A DNA stretch of 64,000 nucleotides from Myxococcota bacterium (GTDB taxonomy: Bacteria; Myxococcota_A; Bradymonadia; UBA7976; UBA1532), in contig CAUJDF010000042.1 of assembly GCA_963169045.1 (NCBI GenBank), positions 184,711 to 248,710 on the forward strand, written 5' to 3'. Position 1 is the first letter of the stretch; the number at the start of each line of letters is the position of its first letter. The notes under the pieces were generated by a model, which ran no database searches, was not told where the DNA came from, and worked only from the letters and a program-made list of their open reading frames with translations. A program made the translations under genes and the position numbers. Positions 45,750-53,362 of the stretch are shown here, piece after piece.

Positions 45750-45836
45750 CCGAGCCCCCCCTTGAACCGGGCCCCTTGCGTGGGCGAGAACACTCGGCCA
45801 GCATCGGGCGTTCGCCGAGACCGGAGGTGGGTGCGT

Positions 45837-46298
45837 TTGCGGCACTGGCTGATGAAGAGCGAGCCGGACGTCTATTCGATCGACGACCTGGAGCGCGACC
45901 GCCGCACGACGTGGGAAGGCGTGCGCAACTATCAGGCCCGCAACTTCCTTCGCGACGACATGAAGGTGGGTGACCTGGTGCTGTTCTATCACTCCAACGC
46001 CGAGCCGGCGGGCGTGGCGGGGGTGGCGCGGGTCTGTCGGGAGGCATACGCCGATCCCACCCAGTTCGATCCGCAGAGCGCGTATCACGATCCCGGCGCG
46101 AAGCCCGAGGCGCCGCGCTGGCTGATGGTCGACGTGGAGTTCGTGCGCAAGCTGCCGGCGCTCGTCGCGCTCGACGCGCTCAAGGCGGACCCGTCGCTCG
46201 AGGGCATGTACGTCATCCGGCGTGGGATGCGTCTGTCGGTGCAGCCGGTGACGCCGGCGCACTTCGCCCACGTGCTGCGGATGGGAGGCGCGGCGTGA
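45837..46298 (+). CDS. EVE-domain protein
   Basis: The 153-residue protein is nearly all EVE domain. The N-terminal signature RHWLMKSEPDVYSIDDLERD is followed by WEGVRNYQARNFLRDDMKVGDLVLFYHSNAEPAGVAGVARV. A TTG start at 45837 (nine bases after GGAGG) makes the protein begin exactly where family members do (M-[RN]-x-W-L-M-K-S-E-P-D); GTG 45831 is too close to the RBS. EVE domains belong to the PUA-like fold and bind modified bases in nucleic acids, and many sit beside modification-dependent restriction or RNA-modification genes. Its stop overlaps the GTG start of the DUF3348 gene, coupling it to the motor-like operon downstream. Confidence 0.88.
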   Translation: MRHWLMKSEPDVYSIDDLERDRRTTWEGVRNYQARNFLRDDMKVGDLVLFYHSNAEPAGVAGVARVCREAYADPTQFDPQSAYHDPGAKPEAPRWLMVDVEFVRKLPALVALDALKADPSLEGMYVIRRGMRLSVQPVTPAHFAHVLRMGGAA

Positions 46299-47107
46299 AC
46301 GCGCCGGTCCCGCGGCTCGACCTGGGGCCGCTCGCGGCGGCCGTGGAAGGCTTCTCGCCGGAGCCGGCGGCCGGCGAGGTGGATCCGACCGCGGTGCTCG
46401 CCGATCTGATCGATCTCCGAGGCGGCGTGGTGCTCGCCGAACGCCTGGCCCTCCTCGACGAGGTGCAGGAGACGGGCGACCCGTCGCTGGCGCCGCAGGC
46501 GCGCCGCCGGCTGTCCGAGGGCGTGGGCGAGATCGAGCGCCGATTGCACGACGCGTTCGACAACGCGCTCAAGCCGCGCTACCGCCTGCCGACGGCGCAC
46601 CGGGCGCTGCTCATCCTGCAACAGTCGGGGGCGCTCGAGGCGCGCAAGGGGGCGCCGTTGCGCAGCGCCATCCGCAATCTTTGGGCGCCGATCAACGAGT
46701 TCGTCGAGCTCAACCTCAAGCGGTCGCGGTTCGCGCTGGCGGAGCTGCGGGCGGCCCTCGGCGAGGACCTGCGCGCCCTCGGCGGCGACGCGGCCCGCCT
46801 CGAGCGGCTCGACGCGGCGCTCGAGGCGGCGACGAAGCACGAGGTGGAGCGGCTGTTCCGGCGCATCCCGCAGGCGTGCGAGGCCTCGTTCGACGCGGCG
46901 CTGCGGCGCGCGGTGGCGGCGCTGCCGGCGGAGGCCACCGCCGCCGACCTCGCCGAGGGCTTCAGCGCGTGGGGCTGGCTGCCGGACGAGATCGAGCGCG
47001 CTCGCGGCCTGGTCGGCGGGGTCGTCACGCGCGAGCGGCGCCGGCTCGAGGCGCTCGTCGAGGCCGCCTGCGACGCGGTCGCCCGCCGGGGGTCCGGTTT
47101 GCGTTGA
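46295..47107 (+). CDS. DUF3348-like helical protein
   Basis: A 270-residue, cytosolic, largely helical protein starting at a GTG that overlaps the EVE stop (GTGA). The segment VLADLIDLRGGVVLAERLALLDEV followed by a long helix array resembles DUF3348, and the neighbours match those of that family (DUF802, OmpA-like, DUF2894, TIGR02757). No enzyme motif is visible. Its constant place ahead of the MotA-like gene suggests a cytosolic partner of the motor complex (inference). Confidence 0.7.
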   Translation: MNAPVPRLDLGPLAAAVEGFSPEPAAGEVDPTAVLADLIDLRGGVVLAERLALLDEVQETGDPSLAPQARRRLSEGVGEIERRLHDAFDNALKPRYRLPTAHRALLILQQSGALEARKGAPLRSAIRNLWAPINEFVELNLKRSRFALAELRAALGEDLRALGGDAARLERLDAALEAATKHEVERLFRRIPQACEASFDAALRRAVAALPAEATAADLAEGFSAWGWLPDEIERARGLVGGVVTRERRRLEALVEAACDAVARRGSGLR

Positions 47108-47171: not shown

Positions 47172-49682
47172 ATGACGCGGGCCGGGGTCCTGGTCGCGGG
47201 GGGCGTCGGCACGGCGCTCGTGGTCCGGGCGGGCGCCGCCTACCAGGGCACCGATCCGGTGGCGCTGCTCGTCGTGGCGGCCATTGGCGCCGTGCTGATC
47301 TGCGGCTTCGCGGAGCAGTGGCTGCGCGCGGGGCGCGTCCGGCGCGACGTGCGCGCGCTCGAGGCGGCGCCGCCACCCGATGCCCTCGACGACCTCCCGG
47401 CGTCACTGCGGCTGCGCCTGCAGTCGCTGGCCGGCGGCCGCGGCGACATACCGCCGTCGGCGGGCTTCACCCCGTACCTGGTCGGCCTCGCGGTGATGCT
47501 GGGCGTGCTGGGCACGTTCCTGGGCCTCGTCGACACGCTCGGGGGCGTGCGCGAGGCCCTGACGGCGGGCGCCGATCCCGCGGCGCTGCGCAAGGCGCTC
47601 GGCGGCCCGATGGCCGGCATGACGCGCGCGTTCGGCACGTCGGTGGCCGGCGTGGCGACGTCCGCGACGCTCGGGCTCGCGGCGGCGCTGGTGCGGCGCG
47701 CGGAGGCCGGGCTGACGGCGCGCGTCGCGGCCTATGCGGCGCGGACGCTGGCGCCCGCCACCCCCGCGGCGCGGTCGCTGGCCGCGCTGGATCGCCTCGT
47801 CGACCAGGGCGCGGCCCTGCCCGCAGCGGCCGAGGCGCTCGGCGGCGTGGTGGCGCGGCTCGACCGGCTCGCGGCGGACGTGGCGGGGGCCCAGGCGAAG
47901 GTCGGCGACCGGCTGGCCGAGGGCCTGGACCGCGTCGCGCGCGAGGGCGTGGCGGCGCAGACCGCGGCGGCGCGCGCGCTCGAGGCGCGGTTCGAGGCGC
48001 TGGGCGGCGCCATCGCCGAGGGGCAGCTGGCGGCGGCGCGGGAGAGCGCGGCGGCGCTTTGGGCGGCGGCGGCAGAGGCGGCGGAGGCGACGCGCACGTC
48101 CGTGGCCACGCTCGTCGGCGAGGCGGTGGGGCGCGCGGGTGCCGTCGCCGGCGAGCACCTGCACTCGCTCGATGGGCGGCTGACGGCCGAGGCGACGACG
48201 CGGCGCGAGGCGGAGGCGCGGATGCTCGCGGCGCTCGAGGCGCGCATCGCCGAGGCGGCGGAACGGCTGGCGGCGGGCGAAGCGGCGCGCCTCAACGCGT
48301 TCGAAGAGCGCTTGTCGGCGATCGCCGCCGAGGTGGCGGGCGCAAGCGAGCGGCTGGCGGCGGCCGAGCAGGCCCGCGCCGCGGCCTTCTCCGAGCGGCT
48401 CGACGCGGTGGTCGGGCGGGTCGAGGCCGCTGGCGAGCGACTGGCCGAGGCCGAGCAGGCCCGCGCCGCGGCGCTCGCCGAAGGGCTGCACGACGCGGCG
48501 GCGCGGCTCGCCGAGGCCGAGCGGGTCCGGGCCGATGCGTTGCACGGCAGCCTGGCGGGCGTGGCCGAGGCCGCGACCCGGGCTGCGGAGCGCGTCGCCG
48601 GCGCAGCCGGAGAGCGCGCGGTCGCCCTCGACGCCCGGCTCGGGGCGATCGCCGAGGCCACTTCCGCGGCCGCGGACCGCCTCGCGGTCCGGGAACAGAC
48701 GCGCGCGGAGCAGCTCGACGGCCGCCTCGCCGATGTGGTCGCCGCCGCCGAGCGCGCCGCCGCGAAGCTCTCCGACGCCGAGCAGGCCCGCGCCGCCGCC
48801 CTCGACGCCCGCCTCGCCGACGTCGTCGCCGCCACCGAGCGCGCCGCCGCGAAGCTCTCCGACGCCGAGCAGGCCCGCGCCGCCGCCCTCGACGCCCGCC
48901 TCGCCGACGTCGTCGCCGCCGCCGAAGGCGCCGCCGCGAAGCTCGCTCTGGCCGAGCAGGCCCGCGCGGCGACGCTGCGCGATCGCCTCGACGAGGTCGC
49001 CGCGCGCTTCGAGGCCACCGGCGACCGCTTCGCGGAGGCCGAGCGCGGCCGGGCCGACGCGGACACGGTCCGCTCGGCGCGGCTCGAGTCGCTGGTGGAG
49101 CGCCTGGCGGCGGCCTTCGACGCCTCCGCCGCCCAGGCCGCGCGGCAGGCGGCGTCGCTCGACGCCTTCGCCGCCGCCGGCGAGCGCCGCGCGACCGAAG
49201 CCCAGGCGCAGGCCGAGGCGCGCATCGCGCACCTGTCGACCCTCTTCGAGCAGGCCCTGGCCCGCCAGGCCGAGCGCCTCGCCGACTTCGAGAGCCACGT
49301 GGCCGAGGCGCGCGCCGAGTCGGCCGGGGCGCTGGCGTCGACGCTGGCCGAGCACGCGCGCGGCCTCGCCGCCGACCTCGCCGCCACGGGGACCGTCGTC
49401 CGCGAGGCTGCCGGCCTGCTGCACTCCGGCGGCGCCGAGCTGACGGCCGTGGCCGAGATGTTCACCGGCGCCGTCGATCGCTACCGCGAAGGCTCGGAGC
49501 GCTGGCTGACCGCCCTCGGCGGCCTCGAGGAGGCGCTCGGCCGCGCCGGTCGCGAGGAGGCGGGCCGCCTGGTCGGCGAGTACCTCGACCAGACGCGCGA
49601 GGTGTTCGGCGACGCGTTGCGGTTCCAGCGCGAGCTCTTCTCCGAGCTGCGGGCGCTGCGCGGCGCCCAGGCGACGACCTGA
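47172..49682 (+). CDS. MotA/TolQ-like membrane protein with long coiled-coil tail (DUF802)
   Basis: An 836-residue protein. Two helices open it (about 4-22 and 27-48). A soluble segment follows, then two helices with the MotA/TolQ/ExbB-like wording YLVGLAVMLGVLGTFLGLVD (about 99-120) and GTSVAGVATSATLGLAAALV (about 153-173). The remaining 660 residues are an Ala/Arg/Glu-rich coiled-coil tail containing about nine copies of a 29-residue unit (AEQARAAALDARLADVVAA...RL). Two or more DUF802 repeats fit this region. Four helices plus a cytosolic tail is the layout of ZorA-type stators. The next gene is the matching MotB-like subunit. The ATG at 47172 has a weak RBS; the TTG at 47121 would add 17 residues. 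Confidence 0.85.
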   Translation: MTRAGVLVAGGVGTALVVRAGAAYQGTDPVALLVVAAIGAVLICGFAEQWLRAGRVRRDVRALEAAPPPDALDDLPASLRLRLQSLAGGRGDIPPSAGFTPYLVGLAVMLGVLGTFLGLVDTLGGVREALTAGADPAALRKALGGPMAGMTRAFGTSVAGVATSATLGLAAALVRRAEAGLTARVAAYAARTLAPATPAARSLAALDRLVDQGAALPAAAEALGGVVARLDRLAADVAGAQAKVGDRLAEGLDRVAREGVAAQTAAARALEARFEALGGAIAEGQLAAARESAAALWAAAAEAAEATRTSVATLVGEAVGRAGAVAGEHLHSLDGRLTAEATTRREAEARMLAALEARIAEAAERLAAGEAARLNAFEERLSAIAAEVAGASERLAAAEQARAAAFSERLDAVVGRVEAAGERLAEAEQARAAALAEGLHDAAARLAEAERVRADALHGSLAGVAEAATRAAERVAGAAGERAVALDARLGAIAEATSAAADRLAVREQTRAEQLDGRLADVVAAAERAAAKLSDAEQARAAALDARLADVVAATERAAAKLSDAEQARAAALDARLADVVAAAEGAAAKLALAEQARAATLRDRLDEVAARFEATGDRFAEAERGRADADTVRSARLESLVERLAAAFDASAAQAARQAASLDAFAAAGERRATEAQAQAEARIAHLSTLFEQALARQAERLADFESHVAEARAESAGALASTLAEHARGLAADLAATGTVVREAAGLLHSGGAELTAVAEMFTGAVDRYREGSERWLTALGGLEEALGRAGREEAGRLVGEYLDQTREVFGDALRFQRELFSELRALRGAQATT
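48690..48950 (+). repeat. Tandem 87-bp repeats encoding the coiled-coil tail
   Basis: Three successive in-frame 87-base units start at 48690, 48777 and 48864, with a fourth, diverged, at 48951. The second and third are identical over their first 57 bases and differ at only a few places after that, so the array has expanded recently. The unit encodes 29 residues. Confidence 0.9.
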
Positions 49683-49684
49683 TC

Positions 49685-50314
49685 GTGTTCGAGGACCCGC
49701 CCGCCCCCGCCGAGGTCGAGTCGGGCACCGTCTGGACGGTGTTCGGCGATCTCATGGCCGGTCTGCTCGGCCTCGTGGTGCTGCTGCTGCTGTGGCTGGT
49801 CGCATGGCAGGTGGATCTGGCCACCGACCTGCAGAAGGAGCGGCAGGCGCGCACGCAGGAGTCCGATCGCCGCGCCCGGCTCGAACGCGCGCTCGCGGGG
49901 CCGCTCGCCGAGGGTCGCATCCAGTTCGTCGACGGTCGGATCGGCATCAGCGGCCGCGTGCTCTTCGATCTGAACTCGGCGGACCTGAAGCCCGAGGGCG
50001 CGGCGCTCCTGCGGGAACTGGCGGCGCCGCTCGCCGGTTATCTCGGTGGTTCCGAGGAGTTGGCCATGGTGAGCGGCTTCACCGACGACCTCGCGATCCA
50101 CGACGACAACCCGCGATTCGCCGACAACTGGGAGCTCTCGGCCCAGCGCGCGCTGACGGTGACGCGGGCGCTCGTCGGCGCCGGCATCGGCCCGTCGCAG
50201 GTGTTCGCCGCGGGCTTCGGCGAGCATCAGCCCGTCGCGCCCAACACGGACGAGGCGAGCCGCGCGCTCAACCGGCGCGTCGAGATCGTCCCCGTGCCGA
50301 GGCGCGGTCCGTGA
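49685..50314 (+). CDS. MotB/ZorB-like OmpA-family protein
   Basis: GTG 49685 gives 209 residues. One N-terminal helix (about 16-38) begins with VFGDLMAGLLGLVVLLLLW. Its Asp22 sits where MotB and ZorB carry the proton-binding aspartate. A short helical linker follows, then an OmpA-type peptidoglycan-binding domain (about 80-209) with FDLNSADLKPEG, SGFTDD, NWELSAQRALTV and NRRVEIV. It should pair with the upstream four-helix protein as a cell-wall-anchored, ion-driven complex. It starts three bases after that gene's stop and overlaps the next start. Confidence 0.9.
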   Translation: MFEDPPAPAEVESGTVWTVFGDLMAGLLGLVVLLLLWLVAWQVDLATDLQKERQARTQESDRRARLERALAGPLAEGRIQFVDGRIGISGRVLFDLNSADLKPEGAALLRELAAPLAGYLGGSEELAMVSGFTDDLAIHDDNPRFADNWELSAQRALTVTRALVGAGIGPSQVFAAGFGEHQPVAPNTDEASRALNRRVEIVPVPRRGP

Positions 50315-51048
50315 CGCCGCTGTTCGAGAGGCTCGAGGAGCTGCGCCGCATGGGCGCGCTCGGCTTCGACCGGCCCGGCTTCCGCTTCATCGAGACGCTG
50401 CTGCAGCGCTCGACGGAGCTGGACGGCGCCGCGGGCGAGCGCCTCGAGATGCGCGCGCGGCAGCGGCTGTCGGCGCTCGAGAGCGCGCTGCGGTCGGCGC
50501 GCGCCGAGGCGGAGGCGGCGCTGGCGACGGCGCGCGCCGCCGGCTGCGCCACGACCGAGCTCGGCGCCCTCTACGCGAAGGGCGACTTCCGCGAGGTGGT
50601 CCAGGGCGCGCGGCGCGCCCTGCTGGCGCTCGACCGTCTCGAGGGCGGCGGCGTGGACCGCCTGCGGCGCCTGCACCGGCGCGCGATGGCCCAGGGCCTG
50701 ACGCTGCCGGCGGCGACGGTGGCCGACATCGAGCGCCTGGTGCGTGACGGGGCGACGCTCGACGCCGACACCGAGGTGCTCGCGCGCGCCATCGGCGACG
50801 AACTCGCGCGGGCGCTCTTCCGCGACGCGGCCGCGCAGGCGCGCGCCGTCCTCGTCGTCGCGCGCGCCGCCGACCGCGTGCCCGACGACGTCGGGCCCTA
50901 CAACCCCCAGGCGCTCTCGGCCCAGACGCTCAGCCTCATCGAGTCGCTGGCGCCCGGCTACCTGCGCACCTGTCTCGCCGGCCTCGAGGACCTCGCGTCG
51001 CTCCGCCGCCTGCCCGAGCCGCCGAAGCGCCCCCGCCGCCGCCGATGA
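50311..51048 (+). CDS. DUF2894-like helical protein
   Basis: A 245-residue soluble protein (GTG 50311 overlapping the upstream TGA). It is built of long helices with a coiled-coil-like middle (RLEMRARQRLSALESALRSARAEAEAAL). Near the C-terminus comes GPYNPQALSAQTLSLIESLAPGYLRTCLAGLEDLASL, and the end is a basic RPRRRR tail. The last part and the position after the OmpA-like gene match DUF2894. No catalytic motif is visible. The basic tail could bind nucleic acid or an acidic partner. Confidence 0.75.
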   Translation: MTPLFERLEELRRMGALGFDRPGFRFIETLLQRSTELDGAAGERLEMRARQRLSALESALRSARAEAEAALATARAAGCATTELGALYAKGDFREVVQGARRALLALDRLEGGGVDRLRRLHRRAMAQGLTLPAATVADIERLVRDGATLDADTEVLARAIGDELARALFRDAAAQARAVLVVARAADRVPDDVGPYNPQALSAQTLSLIESLAPGYLRTCLAGLEDLASLRRLPEPPKRPRRRR

Positions 51049-51902
51049 CGCTGCGCGACGAGCTGACCCGGCTCCTCGACGGGTTCGACTTCGCCCGTCA
51101 CCGCCGCAACGACCCGATCCGCTTCGTGTACGGCTACGACGACCCCGCCGACCGCGAGGTGGTCGCGCTGTTCGCGGCGCTCATGGCTTACGGGCGCGCC
51201 GACCTGATCGGCCGTGCCCTCGAGCGGCTCGTCGAGCGCCTCGGCCCCGCCCCCGCGTCCGCCGCTGACGACGAGGCCGCCGCGCTCGCCCGCTTCGACA
51301 CCTTCGTGTACCGGTTGACGCGCGGGCCCGACCTCGCGCGCATCTGGCTCGGGGTCGCGGCGCTGCGCCGGGAATTCGGCAGTCTCTTCGAGGCGTTCCG
51401 GGCGGGGGACGACGGCGCCGGCGACCTGCGCACCGCTGTGGTGGCCTTCCGCGACCGGCTGCTGGCGCCGACGGCGCACTTCCCGCGGCGGCAGGCGTTC
51501 GAGCACTTCTTCCCCGATCCGCGCCGCGGCAGCCCGTGCAAGCGCGTGTGCATGTGGCTGCGCTGGATGGTGCGCGGGCCCGACGCCGTCGACCTCGGGC
51601 TGTGGTCGGCGCTCGACCCTTCGCGGCTCACCATCCCGCTCGATACGCACGTGCACCGCCTCGGCCGCTACCTCGGCCTGACCGAGCGCCGCCAGGCCGA
51701 CTGGCGCACCGCCGCCGAGATCACCGCCGCCCTGCGCGCGCTCGACCCCGCCGACCCGCTCCGCTACGACTTCGCCCTGGCCCACATGGGCATCAGCGGC
51801 CAGTGCCCCACGCGACGCGTCGAGGCCGTCTGCGCGGCCTGCTCCATCCGGCGCGTCTGCCGCCTCGACGCCGAAGGCCGGGTCGCCTCGTCCCGGAGTT
51901 GA
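51045..51902 (+). CDS. TIGR02757/DUF2400 protein with HhH-GPD-like C-terminal half
   Basis: A 285-residue protein starting at ATG 51045, overlapping the DUF2894 stop. It belongs to the TIGR02757 family (function unassigned). The stretch IPLDTHVHRLGRYLGL (about residue 198) resembles the catalytic-Asp strand VDTHVxRVxxRLGL of endonuclease III. The C-terminus has Cys254-x8-Cys263-x2-Cys266-x5-Cys272, close to the C-x6-C-x2-C-x5-C Fe-S loop of that family. The phrase YDFALAHMGISGQCPTR fills the place of the LILHGRYxC segment. I infer a DNA glycosylase/lyase-like protein. It closes the motor-like operon. Confidence 0.8.
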   Translation: MTLRDELTRLLDGFDFARHRRNDPIRFVYGYDDPADREVVALFAALMAYGRADLIGRALERLVERLGPAPASAADDEAAALARFDTFVYRLTRGPDLARIWLGVAALRREFGSLFEAFRAGDDGAGDLRTAVVAFRDRLLAPTAHFPRRQAFEHFFPDPRRGSPCKRVCMWLRWMVRGPDAVDLGLWSALDPSRLTIPLDTHVHRLGRYLGLTERRQADWRTAAEITAALRALDPADPLRYDFALAHMGISGQCPTRRVEAVCAACSIRRVCRLDAEGRVASSRS

Positions 51903-51946
51903 CGCTCGTGGCACAGTCGGACTCGTACGGCACGAGGAAATTGACC

Positions 51947-53362
51947 ATGCGCATGCTCTTTCTGGCGCTGGCGCTCGCGCTCGCCGGCTGCGACGACGGC
52001 GGACGCACGCGCGACAACCCCGACGAACCGGACGCGTCCGCCCCACCGGACGCCGCCGCGCCCGACGGCGACGGCGCGCGCCCGCCCGACAGCGGCCCGC
52101 CGACCGACGCCGCGGTCCCGGACGCGGCCCTCGACGGCGCCCCGCCGGACCCCGACGCCGCGCCCGTCCCCGAGCTCTGCGACGGGGACGACGACGACGG
52201 CGACGGGCGGATCGACGAGGGCGTCGCCAACATCTGCGGCGGCTGCGGCGGCCTGCCGCCCGAGGGCTGCCAGTCCTGGCGCGTGCAGCTGCTGCGCGAC
52301 GAGGCCGGCGAGACCGACACGAACCGCGTGATCGGCCTGTCCGCGGGCATCCTGGCCGTGTCGGAGCGCCGCCTCGAGGGCGCGGACTGCGAGTTCATCC
52401 GCGTGCCGGCCCAGCACCCGGACGCGCACCTCGGCCTCGTCAACGTCGACGCGCCGGAGGTCACGCTGAACCAGGTGCCGGACTACGACGAGCAGAGCGG
52501 CGCCCACCGCTACGGCAACTCCCCGGATCTCGGCCGCATCCGGCTCTACGGCGACGGCGACCCGCTGACGGTGCGCGCCGGCGGCGGGCGGCTGGTCGGG
52601 GCGTTTCGCGAGACGCTGGACGCGCCGGCCGGGCTCGCGGGTGTGTCCGGCGAGGACCTCGCGCCCTTCGCGGCGCGCGCGCGCGGCGAGGGCGATGGCC
52701 CGGCGACGCTGCGCTGGACGCCGGCCGCGGACGGCGGCGGCGAACTGCGCCTGTTCATCGGCGGCAGCGTCGGCCTGTTCAACCGAAACGTGTACCGTGC
52801 CATCCGCCACTACCAGCTCGACGGCGTCCTGCAGGACGACGGCGAGCTCTCGTTGCCGCCCGAGCTCTTCACGCCCGTCCCGCAGAGCGCGGTCTGGGTC
52901 CACCTGACGCGGCAGGCGCGCCTGCAGAAGCCGCTCGGACCGCACGGCGTCGAGATCCTCGCCGGCCAGCGCGTCGAGACGCGCATGAGCGGCGCCCTCG
53001 ACCTCGACACGACCGCGCCCTTCGACATCCTCGCGCCGTCGCCCAACGAGCGCCGCGTCACGCCGGGCGAGCCCCTCGAGATCCGGTGGAGCGACCCGCC
53101 CGCCGGCACCGGCCCGCTCGTGGTGACGCTGACGCTCGTCGACGGCACCAACCTCGAGGTGCGCCAGCTGTCTTGCACGGTCGACGATCCCGCGGCAGGC
53201 CGCCTTGTGCTGCCCGGCGACGCGACCGAGGCCTGGCCGATGGGCCAGGGCGACCTGCGCCAGCTCAGCATCAGTTACGCCCTCGCCGACGCCCCGCTGC
53301 CGCCGCCCGACCGCGGCAGCCTCACCCAGTCCGTCACCCTCCTCCTGCGCCTCGAGCCCTGA
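51947..53362 (+). CDS. Secreted lipoprotein with MopE-like calcium motif
   Basis: A 471-residue protein from ATG 51947. It has a lipoprotein signal (FLALALALAGC), a 55-residue Asp/Pro/Ala linker, a MopE-like loop (CDGDDDDGDGRIDEG), a small cysteine knot (CGGCGGLPPEGC), a beta-rich middle and, near 370-460, an Ig-like domain (PSPNERRVTPGEPLEIRWSDPPAG). I recognise no enzyme. It is probably exposed on the outer membrane. It is 44 bp downstream of the TIGR02757 gene but unlikely to belong to that system. Confidence 0.75.
   Translation: MRMLFLALALALAGCDDGGRTRDNPDEPDASAPPDAAAPDGDGARPPDSGPPTDAAVPDAALDGAPPDPDAAPVPELCDGDDDDGDGRIDEGVANICGGCGGLPPEGCQSWRVQLLRDEAGETDTNRVIGLSAGILAVSERRLEGADCEFIRVPAQHPDAHLGLVNVDAPEVTLNQVPDYDEQSGAHRYGNSPDLGRIRLYGDGDPLTVRAGGGRLVGAFRETLDAPAGLAGVSGEDLAPFAARARGEGDGPATLRWTPAADGGGELRLFIGGSVGLFNRNVYRAIRHYQLDGVLQDDGELSLPPELFTPVPQSAVWVHLTRQARLQKPLGPHGVEILAGQRVETRMSGALDLDTTAPFDILAPSPNERRVTPGEPLEIRWSDPPAGTGPLVVTLTLVDGTNLEVRQLSCTVDDPAAGRLVLPGDATEAWPMGQGDLRQLSISYALADAPLPPPDRGSLTQSVTLLLRLEP

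What the first reader, a model, noticed from the sequence alone, without database searches (positions are those of the whole stretch)
51640..51865. TIGR02757 protein looks like a DNA glycosylase with an Fe-S loop
LDTHVHRLGRYLGL aligns by eye with the catalytic-Asp strand VDTHVxRVxxRLGL of endonuclease III, and a C-x8-C-x2-C-x5-C motif follows at the C-terminus, close to that family's C-x6-C-x2-C-x5-C cluster loop. The family is annotated as of unknown function. If right, it gives the motor-like operon a DNA-acting member.
Basis: partly seen in the sequence, partly recalled or inferred. Interest (0 to 1): 0.65.

Follow-up and report, generated by a model that had tools for sequence, protein, structure and literature searches.

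The report
Iron-sulfur DNA glycosylase of unknown target
A bacterial protein family filed as 'function unknown' (DUF2400/TIGR02757) turns out to belong to the endonuclease III superfamily of DNA-repair enzymes, in this bacterium with an iron-sulfur loop; its target base is unknown, and its place next to a phage-defence motor operon looks mostly like a lineage-specific neighbourhood.

Summary
The gene at 51045-51902 (+, 285 aa; DUF2400, E=2.5e-67; TIGR02757, over cut-off) holds LDTH (D200) and C254-x8-C263-x2-C266-x5-C272. Three lines place it in the HhH-GPD superfamily. (1) Profile-profile comparison with Nth scores 64.2 against at most 23.1 in 200 shuffles, and in 96-100% of resamplings pairs D200 with D138 and the four Cys with E. 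coli Nth's C187/C194/C197/C203. (2) Single members match known glycosylase models (best 2.3e-7). (3) A confident AlphaFold model (pLDDT 93.7) and that of a clusterless relative find mostly HhH-GPD enzymes at the top of PDB searches. D200 and a lysine, K166, are invariant in 109/109 homologues; the cysteines occur in all but the Bacteroidota/phage branch, and the Pfam/TIGR models stop just before them. Most likely it is a DNA glycosylase, probably with AP-lyase activity; substrate unknown. The 'motor-like operon' is Zorya type III. DUF2400 overlaps its last gene by 4 nt, but the link is confined to one bacterial family (7 genomes linked, 2 unlinked); 23 of 31 good class genomes carry DUF2400, only 5 the Zorya gene. 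An operon role is unproven.

The parts
51045..51902 (+). DUF2400/TIGR02757 gene, 285 aa: predicted HhH-GPD DNA glycosylase with C-terminal iron-sulfur loop
   Evidence: Pfam PF09674 2.5e-67, TIGR02757 181.7 bits over cut-off 139.2, AF2 pLDDT 93.7 and Foldseek HhH-GPD hits
51540..51542 (+). K166, candidate Schiff-base lysine at the start of a helix
   Evidence: invariant 109/109; pairs with Nth K120 in 32-54% of resampled alignments, the commonest pairing in the local mode and tied with 'unaligned' in the global mode
51642..51644 (+). D200, candidate catalytic Asp in LDTH
   Evidence: invariant 109/109; pairs with Nth D138 in 96-100% of resampled alignments
51804..51860 (+). C254-x8-C263-x2-C266-x5-C272, predicted [4Fe-4S] loop
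   Evidence: pairs with Nth C187/C194/C197/C203 in 96-100% of resampled alignments; loop of 3, 7 or 8 residues in homologues, with K/R in 95 of 102
50311..51048 (+). DUF2894 gene (PADLOC ZorF3), overlaps the glycosylase gene by 4 nt
   Evidence: PF11445 2.6e-17; PADLOC ZorF3 1.4e-17
49679..50314 (+). ZorB3-like MotB/OmpA gene
   Evidence: PADLOC ZorB3 2.8e-89
47175..49682 (+). ZorA3-like MotA gene with long repetitive tail
   Evidence: PADLOC ZorA3 2.3e-57
46295..47107 (+). DUF3348-like gene (PADLOC ZorG3), weak match
   Evidence: PF11828 1.4e-4, below its cut-off; PADLOC ZorG3 2.3e-4

Best explanation
The protein is a divergent member of the HhH-GPD (endonuclease III / MutY / OGG) superfamily. 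It most likely works as a DNA glycosylase: it binds duplex DNA between two helical domains, flips out a damaged or modified base, and uses D200 to drive cleavage of the N-glycosidic bond. Invariant K166 probably acts as the Schiff-base nucleophile, making it a bifunctional glycosylase/AP lyase. The four C-terminal cysteines probably hold a [4Fe-4S] cluster whose first loop, usually carrying Arg/Lys, contacts the DNA backbone as in endonuclease III. Shown here: superfamily membership, the match of Asp and Cys to endonuclease III, and invariance of K166 and D200. Inferred: cluster binding, the role of K166, and catalysis. Unknown: the substrate base. It is probably a general genome-maintenance gene that happens to lie beside a Zorya type III cassette in this bacterial family.
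For: phmmer of the single protein against the PDB: only endonuclease III entries, best E=0.003, aligned through LDTH and the Cys. Profile searches: endonuclease III best, E=0.001 and 7.6e-4. hhalign against Nth: probability 95.7, E=9.7e-9, score 64.2; still 58.2 without the Cys loop; shuffles max 23.1; reversed 12.0. Asp and four Cys pair with D138 and C187/194/197/203 in 96-100% of resamplings. Members hit NCBIfam DR2438 glycosylase (19/37, best 2.3e-7), nth (9), mutY (6) and Pfam HhH-GPD (12/37, best 4.1e-4). Foldseek: EndoIII-3, MutY, NTHL1, EndoIII on top, probability up to 1.00; for a clusterless relative EndoIII-3, P. furiosus 1xg7 (AGOG), OGG1. K166 and D200 invariant 109/109.
Against: Residues 1-192 alone show no sequence signal to Nth, so the N-terminal half rests on the predicted structure. 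Foldseek E-values are not below 0.001 and TM-scores are about 0.5. No canonical LPGVGxK hairpin sequence is present, and the K166-K120 pairing is not robust. Spacing K166-D200 is 34 against 18 in Nth. No papers with enzymatic data were found. The genome already has nth and mutM, so a housekeeping need is not evident.
Confidence: 0.77

Rival explanations
1. It has the HhH-GPD fold but hydrolyses a nucleoside or nucleotide (N-glycosidase) rather than a base in DNA, like the queuosine-salvage enzyme of family DUF2419.
For: The model of the clusterless relative matches the DUF2419 queuine-salvage structures 7uk3 (probability 0.92) and 7u5a (0.72) among its best hits. The N-terminal half is divergent and the canonical DNA-binding hairpin sequence is missing.
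Against: The window protein's own fold hits listed are DNA glycosylases, with no DUF2419 among them. The Cys loop and LDTH match endonuclease III specifically, including a usually basic loop.
Confidence: 0.1
2. It is a DNA-acting part of a five-gene Zorya type III variant: the motor genes sense infection and the glycosylase damages phage DNA by base excision.
For: Same strand, 4-nt overlap with the DUF2894 gene; adjacent in seven genomes of the family. Zorya II carries a probable HNH nuclease ZorE whereas type III lists only two DUF proteins (PMC11890865). [quoted passage not shown]
Against: DUF2400 occurs in 23 of 31 good class genomes, DUF2894 in only 5. Unlinked in G002 and G012, and Zorya without DUF2400 nearby in G001. 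The published type III system from Stenotrophomonas protected E. coli with ZorA, ZorB, ZorF and ZorG (PMC8565338).
Confidence: 0.08
3. It has lost catalysis and only binds DNA structurally.
For: D. radiodurans EndoIII-3, the top fold hit, has no detected EndoIII activity despite its fold (PMC10523315).
Against: D200 and K166 are invariant across phyla, phages and clusterless members, unlike a decayed active site.
Confidence: 0.05

Closest known systems
Endonuclease III (Nth), HhH-GPD superfamily
   Same: DTH motif with catalytic Asp, four-Cys loop in the same order, a conserved Lys before the Asp, overall fold
   Different: First Cys spacing 7-8 (once 3) instead of 6, Lys-Asp spacing 33-35 instead of 18, no LPGVGxK hairpin sequence, N-terminal half not detectable by sequence
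MutY / MUTYH
   Same: High fold-search probability (up to 1.00); FeS loop (own knowledge for MutY)
   Different: Only weak matches to the mutY model (best 6.6e-4, 6 of 37 members); at 285 aa no room for the MutY C-terminal domain
AGOG (archaeal 8-oxoguanine glycosylase)
   Same: Non-canonical hairpin region and similar Lys-Asp spacing (K140-D172 = 32 in Pa-AGOG, PMC10157611); P. furiosus AGOG 1xg7 is a top fold hit of the clusterless relative
   Different: No member matches the Pfam AGOG model; short AGOG fragments do not align to the expected residues above chance; AGOG is described without an FeS cluster (own knowledge)
D. radiodurans EndoIII-like glycosylases (DR2438, EndoIII-3)
   Same: Best-scoring NCBIfam and Foldseek relatives
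   Different: Far below the DR2438 model's cut-off (17.6 bits against 400 for the window protein)
Zorya type III
   Same: Neighbouring genes match PADLOC ZorA3, ZorB3, ZorF3 and weakly ZorG3
   Different: DUF2400 is not part of the described system

Membership tests
TIGR02757 / DUF2400 | Score over curated cut-off | tested here: met
   227.6 against 25 bits; 181.7 against 139.2 bits
HhH-GPD superfamily | Statistically significant profile similarity | tested here: met
   hhalign score 64.2, shuffles max 23.1; Pfam HhH-GPD hits 12/37 members, best 4.1e-4, though not the window protein itself
HhH-GPD superfamily | Two-domain all-helical glycosylase fold | tested here: met
   AF2 pLDDT 93.7; leading PDB hits all HhH-GPD, probability up to 1.00, but E >= 0.07 and TM about 0.5; second model agrees
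HhH-GPD superfamily | Invariant catalytic Asp | tested here: met
   D200 109/109, pairs with D138 in 96-100% of resamplings
HhH-GPD superfamily | Helix-hairpin-helix of the L-P-G-V-G type | tested here: inconclusive
   The canonical sequence is absent: the stretch before K166 is FFPDPRRGSPC, with only a weak alignment to LPGVGR. AGOG, an accepted member, also has a non-canonical hairpin (PMC10157611), and the hairpin geometry could not be inspected here
Bifunctional glycosylase/AP lyase | Catalytic Lys in the hairpin | tested here: inconclusive
   K166 invariant 109/109, but pairing with K120 in only 32-54% of resamplings
Endonuclease III (Nth, TIGR01083) | Score over the nth cut-off of 211.7 bits | tested here: not met
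   nth only a weak match in 9/37 members, best 0.0056; nth is a separate gene in this genome
Endonuclease III (Nth, TIGR01083) | C-x6-C-x2-C-x5-C loop | tested here: not met
   C-x8-C-x2-C-x5-C: the last two spacings as in Nth, the first longer
Endonuclease III (Nth, TIGR01083) | Bound [4Fe-4S] cluster and excision of oxidised pyrimidines | not testable with these tools
   needs purified protein
AGOG (PF09171) | Match to the family model | tested here: not met
   absent from Pfam hits of 37 members at E<=1; fragment test negative
Zorya type III component | Consistent presence in Zorya III loci | tested here: not met
   linked in 7, unlinked in 2, absent in 1 family genome with the Zorya gene; DUF2400 otherwise without Zorya

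The most novel reading that the evidence does not exclude
In this myxobacterial family a Zorya type III cassette has recruited an iron-sulfur DNA glycosylase as its DNA-damaging effector, so that the motor complex triggers base excision of phage DNA.
Probability: 0.07. Interest if true: 0.8.

Novelty: new variant of a known kind. Interest (0 to 1): 0.45.

Why it matters
A family annotated 'function unknown', held by many delta-type proteobacteria, Acidobacteria, Nitrospirae, Bacteroidota and Bacteroides phages, gains a concrete testable function. It looks like a deep branch of the best-studied DNA glycosylase superfamily, existing both with and without an iron-sulfur loop. The Pfam and TIGR models end just before that loop, which helps explain why it was missed. 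The substrate is an open question that a simple biochemical panel could answer.

Tried and rejected
(1) Profile search of residues 1-192 against Nth: no signal. (2) AGOG link: peptide fragments read from published mutagenesis primers were scanned, ungapped, against the DUF2400 profile; the Lys fragment ranked 109th of 260 at K166 and the Asp fragment aligned best at D183, not D242, so the by-eye AGOG resemblance is not claimed beyond Lys-Asp spacing and one fold hit. (3) DUF2400 as a replacement for MutM: rejected for this lineage; the own genome and most DUF2400-bearing relatives also have MutM-type genes. (4) A Zorya III requirement for DUF2400: rejected. (5) Conserved neighbours outside the family: ORF clustering in 80 loci gave no shared neighbour beyond closely related groups and was blurred by spurious GC-rich ORFs. 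(6) PHROGs: no hit. (7) Single-sequence scan of genome contigs found nothing; the alignment-based scan worked. (8) Literature: no paper for TIGR02757, one incidental for DUF2400.

Full report
What is there. The gene at 51045-51902 (+) encodes 285 aa. L199-D200-T201-H202 begins at 51639 and the cysteines are C254, C263, C266 and C272. It is DUF2400 (PF09674, 2.5e-67) and TIGR02757 (181.7 bits, cut-off 139.2), both annotated as unknown. The genome holds a single copy. Both models end at residues 250-251, just before C254, so the database entries do not see the Cys loop.

Conservation. In 109 homologues from the same class, from GTDB-wide loci (Myxococcota, Geobacter and relatives, Acidobacteria, Nitrospirae and others), from Bacteroidota and their phages and from one archaeal provirus, K166, R167, R173, W174, R177, D183, D200, D237, P238 and D242 are identical in all. 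Some of the 109 are the same genome reached by two routes, so the number of independent sequences is somewhat lower. The Cys loop is present in 104 and cut off by a contig end in one; the four without it are the Bacteroidota/phage members. Three viral-contig members also lack it. The first spacing is 8 in 86, 7 in 15 and 3 in one sequence; x2 and x5 are constant. The first loop carries K/R in 95 of 102, as expected if it touches DNA like the endonuclease III loop. The spacing K166-D200 is 33-35.

Superfamily. A single-sequence phmmer of the protein against all PDB chains returns only endonuclease III, E=0.003-0.005, aligned through the Asp and the last cysteines; without the Cys part it drops to 0.12. 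The profile gives 0.001 and 7.6e-4; in the latter run designed helical proteins also score near 0.002, in another region, so these E-values alone would not suffice. hhalign of 37 DUF2400 against 9 Nth sequences gives E=9.7e-9, score 64.2. Controls: 200 column shuffles reach at most 23.1, the reversed profile 12.0, and removing the Cys loop still leaves 58.2. In 100 resamplings D200 pairs with Nth D138 and the four Cys with C187, C194, C197, C203 in 96-100%; K166 pairs with K120 in 32-54% and is otherwise mostly unaligned or on a neighbour. The E. coli Nth sequence in that alignment was supplied from memory; its key positions (K120, D138, four Cys) were checked in the output. Members also hit NCBIfam DR2438 glycosylase (19/37, best 2.3e-7), nth and mutY, and Pfam HhH-GPD (12/37, best 4.1e-4).

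Structure. AlphaFold2 gives pLDDT 93.7, pTM 0.91. Foldseek against the PDB returns EndoIII-3, MutY, MUTYH, NTHL1, EndoIII, the P. furiosus protein 1xg7 (AGOG, as PMC10157611 says) and TAG as its leading hits, with probabilities up to 1.00 but E-values of 0.07 and worse and TM about 0.5: the right superfamily, a distant member. A second model of a clusterless viral-contig member (pLDDT 91.6) finds EndoIII-3, 1xg7, OGG1 and the DUF2419 queuosine-salvage enzyme. The last leaves a non-DNA N-glycosidase as a rival.

Mechanism. I commit to a DNA glycosylase, probably bifunctional, with a [4Fe-4S] cluster in this branch. Shown: superfamily, position and invariance of D200, invariance of K166, match of the Cys to the cluster ligands. 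Inferred: cluster, chemistry, DNA binding. Open: substrate. It does not stand in for MutM or Nth here, since the genome has both. Phage annotators already wrote 'N-glycosylase/DNA lysase' for two phage copies, so the idea is not wholly new, although no paper on the family was found.

The operon. The upstream genes match PADLOC Zorya type III: ZorG3 (DUF3348, weak), ZorA3 (2.3e-57), ZorB3 (2.8e-89), ZorF3 (DUF2894, 1.4e-17); the founding paper (PMC8565338) uses the letters F and G the other way round. The DUF2400 start overlaps the DUF2894 stop by 4 nt, and similar GTGA overlaps are seen in two relatives. Within the family, seven genomes have the two genes adjacent (G000, G005, G006, G007, G008, G010, G011), two have both but apart (G002, G012) and one has the Zorya genes with no DUF2400 found (G001). 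Outside the family, among the genomes searched, DUF2400 is common and the Zorya gene absent: 23 of 31 against 5 of 31 good class genomes. A neighbouring putative secreted-protein gene (51932-53362) stays near DUF2400 even where Zorya is absent. So DUF2400 is a general gene whose neighbourhood in this family includes Zorya. Co-transcription is likely; a defence role is possible (glycosylases of another fold, Brig1-3, defend against phages, PMC13160076) but improbable on present evidence.

Verdict. Fold reading right, operon inference weak, substrate open.

Noticed in passing
L130:3512-4771 (BK065154.1, Archaeoglobus profundus pleomorphic provirus 1): A DUF2400 protein (6.2e-30) with the same C-x8-C-x2-C-x5-C loop and an extra C-terminal part with a D...EVK pattern that by eye resembles a PD-(D/E)XK nuclease; the nuclease reading is by eye only.
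   Followed up: partly
L128:3992-5140, L129:3950-4702, L132:2995-3735: Bacteroides/Parabacteroides phages carry clusterless DUF2400 genes, one beside RuvC, RecN-like and NinB genes, another near a cytosine methyltransferase and a PAPS reductase.
   Followed up: partly
47175-49682: The ZorA-like gene has a long tail built of 87-nt (29-aa) repeats, up to 88% alike.
   Followed up: no
45762-46298: An EVE-domain gene (4.6e-57; EVE domains bind modified bases) overlaps the start of the Zorya cassette by 4 nt; not found beside the cassette in the relatives examined.
   Followed up: partly
51932-53362: A putative secreted, Asp-rich protein with no clear family is conserved near DUF2400 in the bacterial family, in one genome on the opposite strand.
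   Followed up: partly
L112, L115, L118, L121, L123, L126: The main Nth of many of these relatives has an altered Cys loop ending in C-P-I-C (C-V-I-C in L123) instead of the usual C-x2-C-x5-C.
   Followed up: no
L094: The DUF2400 copy of a Chlamydiae MAG has an internal stop codon.
   Followed up: no
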